Shown here: in pieces, positions 21,480 through 21,856 of the stretch
Layout of the letters: the number at the start of each line of letters is the position of its first letter
How positions within the stretch are numbered: position 1 is the stretch's first letter
Assembly (NCBI GenBank): GCA_947501325.1
Contig: CANMVC010000002.1
Location: 558,001-622,000 of the forward strand
Direction of reading: 5' to 3'
Length of the DNA stretch: 64,000 bases
Origin: an uncultured Sphingomonadaceae bacterium
GTDB lineage: Bacteria > Pseudomonadota > Alphaproteobacteria > Sphingomonadales > Sphingomonadaceae
Notes under the pieces: model-generated
The model's database searches: none
Told to the model about the DNA's origin: nothing
The model's input: only the letters and a program-made list of their open reading frames with translations
Made by a program: the position numbers and the translations under genes

Positions 21480-21552
21480 ACATCTGCTGTCTGGGCGATA
21501 ATGTAACCTTTTCACCTCCCAGTGCGTATCTCGACCATGAACCATTTAATGT

Positions 21553-21582
21553 TTGACATGAGAACATATTTAGAACATTAAA
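21553..21582 (+). promoter_or_regulatory. LexA-controlled promoter: -35 TTGACA, LexA box GAAC-N7-GAAC (21562-21576) in the spacer, -10 ATTAAA
   Basis: Perfect -35; perfect alphaproteobacterial LexA motif; further GTTC at 21584 and GAAC at 21595, each at 11-bp steps. Confidence 0.75.
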
Positions 21583-21613
21583 GGTTCATAGAAAGAACAT
21601 ACTGGATTTTAAC

Positions 21614-21856
21614 ATGCTAACTATCGCTATTTCTTCCCTTTTTGCGCTTGCGCTCGGTGGAGCGCTTTTCATTATTGGGATGATGTTTCATGCCTATCAA
21701 GGGAAAATCAAGGCTGTGATTTTGGCTGAGCTTGGCGATACGAGCGTTACTAAAACAGTGGTCTCGCAACGCAATCACAGCTTGGTCGCAAAACCCTATC
21801 GGACTAAAGTGCGCCGCCACTCTTTTCAGCAAGTGCCATTGCGCGCTGCCGCTTAA
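21614..21856 (+). CDS. Small single-TM membrane protein (80 aa), predicted SOS-regulated
   Basis: MLTIAISSLFALALGGALFIIGMMF hydrophobic segment plus basic C-terminus; LexA promoter just upstream. Confidence 0.65.
   Translation: MLTIAISSLFALALGGALFIIGMMFHAYQGKIKAVILAELGDTSVTKTVVSQRNHSLVAKPYRTKVRRHSFQQVPLRAAA

What the first reader, a model, noticed from the sequence alone, without database searches (positions are those of the whole stretch)
21538..21856. Small membrane protein behind a textbook LexA promoter: candidate undescribed SOS effector
Seen directly: -35 TTGACA (21553-21558), perfect GAAC-N7-GAAC (21562-21576) filling the spacer, -10 ATTAAA (21577-21582), then an 80-aa ORF at 21614 starting with one TM helix and ending basic. 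Established: GTTC-N7-GTTC (equivalently GAAC-N7-GAAC) is the alphaproteobacterial LexA operator, and SOS regulons in other bacteria contain small membrane effectors (SidA in Caulobacter, TisB in E. coli, YneA in Bacillus). Inference: this ORF is a DNA-damage-induced division inhibitor or membrane effector with no obvious similarity to SidA.
Basis: partly seen in the sequence, partly recalled or inferred. Interest (0 to 1): 0.82.

Follow-up and report, generated by a model that had tools for sequence, protein, structure and literature searches.

The report
Conserved SOS-controlled small membrane protein
An unnamed 80-residue membrane protein sits behind a DNA-damage (LexA) switch, and the same switch, gene position and protease-tag-like tail recur across almost the whole sphingomonad family, so these bacteria probably share an undescribed brake or effector that is made only when their DNA is broken.

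Summary
Promoter and ORF are at the stated coordinates. One GAAC-N7-GAAC in 64 kb is not significant alone (3 found, 1.65 expected), but another lies upstream of recA. Comparison settles it: all 30 same-genus (Parasphingorhabdus) orthologues examined carry the operator at -52 (one at -53); all 40 held-out homologues from other Sphingomonadaceae, found by protein profile alone, carry one 45-163 bp upstream (3 of 358 control segments). In 35 of 40 further genera without a convincing profile match, the same spot beside pssA holds an N-terminal-TM small ORF behind an operator (opposite strand 0/40). The N-terminal half is under purifying selection. 84 of 89 C-termini end in Ala-Ala (0 of 53 window genes), like this genome's tmRNA tag (...ALAVAA), also where pssA does not overlap. 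No Pfam or PDB match, no SulA, no report found. Best reading: a LexA-repressed single-pass membrane protein with a basic cytoplasmic tail that briefly blocks division during SOS and is cleared by ClpXP-type proteolysis. LexA control is near certain by comparison; division inhibition is inferred.

The parts
21553..21558 (+). -35 hexamer TTGACA
   Evidence: sequence; TTGAC also lies directly upstream of the operator in most loci of other genera
21562..21576 (+). LexA operator GAACATATTTAGAAC in the promoter spacer
   Evidence: conserved at -52 in 29 and -53 in 1 of 30 genus orthologues; upstream operator in 40/40 held-out family members
21577..21582 (+). presumed -10 ATTAAA (weak, 3/6)
   Evidence: sequence; ATTAAA or ATTAAG in 23 of 30 orthologues; not listed by the consensus scan
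21584..21587 (+). third half-site GTTC, 11 bp on (inverted orientation)
   Evidence: GTTC in register in 24/30 orthologues; role inferred
21595..21598 (+). fourth half-site GAAC, 11 bp on
   Evidence: GAAC in register in 29/30 orthologues; role inferred
21614..21856 (+). 80-aa small membrane protein (stop codon included)
   Evidence: dN/dS 0.23 over codons 1-40 and 0.31 over codons 1-62; helix 2-40, pLDDT 86-98
21836..21853 (+). C-terminal PLRAAA, ssrA-like end (presumed degron)
   Evidence: Ala-Ala end in 84/89 members against 0/53 window genes and 16/350 neighbouring ORFs; own tmRNA tag ANDNEALAVAA
21804..22598 (-). pssA (CDP-alcohol phosphatidyltransferase), convergent neighbour overlapping the ORF by 53 nt; synteny marker of the family
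   Evidence: Pfam PF01066; conserved neighbour
31395..31409 (+). LexA-type site upstream of recA, internal control for the operator
   Evidence: recA by Pfam

Best explanation
The gene belongs to a Sphingomonadaceae-wide family of LexA-repressed small inner-membrane proteins. Without damage LexA sits between the -35 and -10 (possibly over an array of four half-sites) and keeps it off. When RecA triggers LexA cleavage the promoter fires. The product inserts by one N-terminal helix with its basic, disordered tail in the cytoplasm, and most likely holds back the divisome (as SidA, SosA and YneA do) while DNA is repaired. Its Ala-Ala tail imitates the ssrA tag, so ClpXP/ClpAP-type proteolysis removes it once synthesis stops, which ends the arrest. 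Shown by comparison: LexA-type operator, selection on the peptide, TM helix, conserved locus, conserved ssrA-like end. Inferred: topology (positive-inside rule), proteolysis, and division as the target.
For: Operator at -52/-53 in 30/30 genus orthologues, upstream in 18/19 and 40/40 distant homologues against 3/358 control segments, and 35/40 synteny-found loci with 0/40 on the opposite strand. Same motif at lexA, uvrA, rmuC, RNR and recA in this genome. Purifying selection. One helix plus disordered tail; no K/R before the TM, tail net charge +6. Ala-Ala end in 84/89, kept in loci without pssA overlap; own tmRNA tag ends AVAA. No SulA in 41 relatives. Precedents: SidA, LexA-controlled and the cause of filamentation in a Caulobacter lexA mutant (PMC4211646, PMC12700426); SosA, 77 aa, one TM, same locus within its genus, C-terminus governing turnover (PMC6851548).
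Against: No expression, morphology or interaction data. No sequence similarity to any known inhibitor. SidA is only 29 aa, and the SosA tail is extracellular whereas this one is predicted cytoplasmic. The fast-diverging middle (dN/dS 0.82) gives no hint of a fixed interaction surface. Topology and degron are not measured.
Confidence: 0.5

Rival explanations
1. A TisB/DinQ-type SOS toxin: the helix depolarises the inner membrane and lowers ATP so that damaged cells go dormant.
For: LexA control and a single N-terminal helix are shared with TisB and DinQ (PMC3567139).
Against: DinQ is a 27-aa bare helix under antisense RNA control; here there is a 40-residue basic tail with a conserved ssrA-like end, a leader of only about 25 nt in this genus, no Rfam hit worth the name, and the one antisense promoter-like site inside the ORF is not conserved.
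Confidence: 0.18
2. A different SOS membrane regulator: the cytoplasmic basic tail or the helix modulates another membrane protein (a protease, transporter, secretion or envelope factor, or nucleoid tethering) rather than division.
For: Basic disordered tail; no homology that fixes the target; in genus g92 the gene lies beside lon instead of pssA.
Against: No positive evidence for any such target; known SOS-induced single-TM proteins of this size with tested function are mostly division inhibitors.
Confidence: 0.22
3. The transcript, not the peptide, matters: SOS transcription runs into the convergent pssA-psd operon and lowers phospholipid synthesis by antisense or collision.
For: Tail-to-tail overlap with pssA is widespread.
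Against: Purifying selection on the peptide in codons not overlapping pssA; members without overlap, and members not linked to pssA, keep operator, TM helix and tail.
Confidence: 0.06
4. Coincidence: a chance motif in front of a spurious ORF.
For: In the single window the number of sites is within chance.
Against: All comparative results.
Confidence: 0.01

Closest known systems
SidA (Caulobacter crescentus)
   Same: LexA-controlled small inner-membrane protein of an alphaproteobacterium; the most likely functional analogue
   Different: 29 aa against 80 aa; it is known to block FtsW (PMC4211646), nothing of the kind is shown here; SidA itself was not on hand for a sequence comparison
SosA (Staphylococcus)
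   Same: 77 aa, one N-terminal TM, SOS-induced, same chromosomal locus within its genus, divergent sequence, C-terminus governs turnover (PMC6851548)
   Different: SosA tail is extracellular and linked to CtpA; here the tail is predicted cytoplasmic with an ssrA-like end
YneA / ChiZ
   Same: SOS-induced TM division inhibitors
   Different: they carry an extracellular LysM domain (stated in PMC6851548); no domain found here
DidA (Caulobacter crescentus)
   Same: 71 aa, single TM, damage-induced division inhibitor
   Different: induced by DriD, not LexA; [quoted passage not shown]
TisB / DinQ (E. coli)
   Same: LexA-controlled single-TM small proteins
   Different: type I toxins under antisense RNA control; DinQ is a 27-aa peptide (PMC3567139); no conserved antisense promoter here
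SulA (E. coli)
   Same: SOS division inhibitor with regulated proteolysis
   Different: soluble FtsZ inhibitor; no SulA in 41 relatives

Membership tests
Alphaproteobacterial LexA (SOS) regulon | GAAC/GTTC direct repeat with 7-bp spacer in the promoter | tested here: met
   same motif at lexA, uvrA, recA
Alphaproteobacterial LexA (SOS) regulon | LexA binding and RecA-dependent damage induction | not testable with these tools
   needs EMSA/ChIP and RNA-seq
SOS-induced small TM division inhibitors (functional kind) | small protein with a single TM helix | tested here: met
SOS-induced small TM division inhibitors (functional kind) | blocks division when expressed | not testable with these tools
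   needs overexpression and deletion
SidA | 29-aa protein size | tested here: not met
   80 aa here, 69-100 aa in 89 members; SidA size from PMC4211646
SidA | sequence homology | not tested
   the SidA sequence was not fetched; a class-wide profile search found nothing convincing outside the family
YneA/ChiZ | extracellular LysM domain | tested here: not met
   no Pfam domain in any of 56 members
SulA (PF03846) | match to the SulA model | tested here: not met
   0 of 41 genomes, E. coli control positive
TisB/DinQ type I toxins | cis-encoded antisense RNA antitoxin | tested here: inconclusive
   no Rfam match of note; the single promoter-like site is not conserved
ssrA-like C-degron proteins | C-terminal Ala-Ala with free cytoplasmic end | tested here: met
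   84/89; the cytoplasmic side is only predicted by the positive-inside rule
ssrA-like C-degron proteins | measured ClpXP/ClpAP degradation | not testable with these tools
   needs pulse-chase or translation shut-off

The most novel reading that the evidence does not exclude
Nearly all Sphingomonadaceae share an undescribed SOS checkpoint protein that carries its own ssrA-mimicking degron, so that one small protein encodes both the division block and its timer; position, operator and tail are conserved while the rest of the sequence drifts beyond recognition.
Probability: 0.45. Interest if true: 0.78.

Novelty: new member of a known kind. Interest (0 to 1): 0.66.

Why it matters
How bacteria other than a few models stop dividing during DNA damage is mostly unknown, because each lineage seems to have its own fast-evolving small inhibitor that homology searches miss. 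Here operator, gene order and C-terminal tag together find such a candidate across a whole bacterial family. That gives a testable gene in dozens of genera, a search strategy for other lineages (operator plus synteny plus degron), and a possible case of a natural protein that uses an ssrA-like tail to time a checkpoint.

Tried and rejected
Motif significance inside the window alone: not significant. Single-sequence homology: genus only; profiles were needed to leave it. Pfam, NCBIfam, PHROGs, PDB: no usable match; the hlyIII and small_EYxxD matches of single members are far below cut-off. SulA: absent. Paralogue at the similar operator C2:1007932: it is the uvrA promoter, not a second copy. 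Idea that LRAAA is only a by-product of the opposite-strand pssA codons (VKRQR): rejected, since all nine non-overlapping or unlinked loci still end in Ala, eight of them in Ala-Ala. IstR-like antisense RNA: candidate promoter not conserved. Class-wide profile search: nothing convincing outside the family. Same locus in 16 loci from other families of the order: no such gene beside pssA. Fold search skipped: a single helix would match anything. Literature searches found no description of the gene, but the library holds open-access papers only.

Full report
What is there. The promoter and ORF are exactly as described: TTGACA 21553-21558, GAAC-N7-GAAC 21562-21576, ATTAAA 21577-21582, ORF 21614-21856, 80 aa. 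The -10 is weaker than 'textbook'. The window belongs to a 3.58-Mb genome whose close relatives are named Parasphingorhabdus/Sphingorhabdus. One of the other two lies just upstream of recA.

Regulon context. The genome holds 83 perfect motifs; of the 50 I read with their flanks, many lie inside genes. Those outside genes include the promoters of lexA, uvrA and rmuC, and sites near a ribonucleotide reductase gene, two radical-SAM genes and an S24-peptidase gene, besides recA. The motif is therefore very probably the LexA operator of this organism.

Conservation in the genus. 31 of 33 genus genomes encode the ORF. All 30 loci read carry GAAC-N7-GAAC at -52 from the ATG (one at -53), with the -35 and two further half-sites in 11-bp phase: GTTC in 24/30 and GAAC in 29/30 in register. 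Codons 1-40 have median dN/dS 0.23, and codons 1-62, which do not overlap pssA, 0.31: the peptide is under selection.

Beyond the genus. A genus profile hit 44 of 401 family genomes. 18 of 19 new distant loci had an operator upstream, and nearly all lay between rpsB/tsf and pssA/psd, convergent with pssA. A second profile (A2) matched 187 of 401 family genomes in 62 of 96 genera at the loose cut-off E<=0.1. Of 40 members not used in that profile, 40 had an operator 45-163 bp upstream, against 3 of 358 200-bp control segments of the same loci. I then took 40 genera in which the sampled genome had no match or only a weak one, located pssA and read beyond its 3' end: 35 have an N-terminal-TM ORF of suitable size behind an operator. 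The same scan gave 0/40 on the opposite strand, 0/186 tiles of the window and 1/120 tiles in other families of the order. Position, operator and architecture are thus better conserved than sequence. Sixteen loci from other families of the order lack it beside pssA, and a class-wide search found nothing convincing outside the family.

The protein. In 89 members the most hydrophobic 19-residue stretch starts near residue 3, no K/R precedes it, and the tail has median net charge +6. By the positive-inside rule (established knowledge) this means N-out, C-in. AlphaFold2 gives one helix 2-40 (pLDDT 86-98) and a low-confidence, unstructured tail. 84 of 89 end in Ala-Ala, against 0 of 53 window genes and 16 of 350 neighbouring ORFs. 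The tmRNA tag of this genome is ANDNEALAVAA. Because the last codons lie opposite pssA codons for VKRQR, I checked the loci without overlap: L064, L065, L066, L072, L073, L078, L159, and the pssA-unlinked L068 and L149. They end FAA, SAA, FAA, VAA, FAA, MAA, IAA, RVA and RAA. The end is therefore probably selected for itself. That ClpX recognises Ala-Ala ends is established knowledge; its use here is inference.

How it probably works. LexA sits in the promoter spacer and represses. Damage frees the promoter, the membrane protein accumulates and, by analogy with SidA (PMC4211646), SosA (PMC6851548) and YneA, most likely blocks the divisome; the ssrA-like tail then gives fast removal. SulA is absent. 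A Caulobacter lexA mutant filaments through SidA (PMC12700426), so an alphaproteobacterial precedent exists. My estimates: LexA control about 0.95, division inhibitor about 0.5, TisB/DinQ-like depolariser about 0.18, other membrane regulator about 0.22.

Novelty. No Pfam or PDB family covers it; one member each gives a lone weak NCBIfam and PHROG match. Where databases name it, the name is 'hypothetical protein', and searches of the open-access library found no description. As a protein family it appears undescribed; as a kind (SOS-induced small TM effector) it is known.

Noticed in passing
window 31395-31409: Perfect LexA-type site GAACAAGAGTGGAAC just upstream of recA; internal control for the operator.
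   Followed up: yes
own genome, L082, L086, L059, L042, L047, L081, L048: Perfect LexA-type sites near lexA, uvrA, rmuC, a ribonucleotide reductase gene, two radical-SAM genes and an S24-peptidase gene outline the SOS regulon.
   Followed up: partly
window 21562-21598: Four half-sites in strict 11-bp phase (GAAC, GAAC, GTTC, GAAC) conserved in the genus; suggests more than one LexA dimer or an extended operator. In other genera a second full site or an extra GGAAC often follows.
   Followed up: partly
L068 (1474-1725, minus), L149 (812-1060): In genus g92 the homologue has left the pssA locus; in L068 it lies beside a lon-like protease gene, and it keeps the operator and an Ala-rich end.
   Followed up: no
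L231 (about 428-611 in the reverse-complemented locus): A genome from another family of the order has an unrelated-looking 60-aa N-TM ORF with LexA-type sites 33 and 73 bp upstream, ending VAAE, at a different place: possibly an independent SOS membrane peptide.
   Followed up: no
window 21804-21856: 53-nt tail-to-tail overlap with pssA, widespread in the family (17-98 nt) but absent in some genera; a possible antisense effect on phospholipid synthesis was not tested.
   Followed up: partly
window 21099-21479: DUF1304 membrane protein (PF06993) directly upstream of the SOS promoter on the same strand.
   Followed up: no
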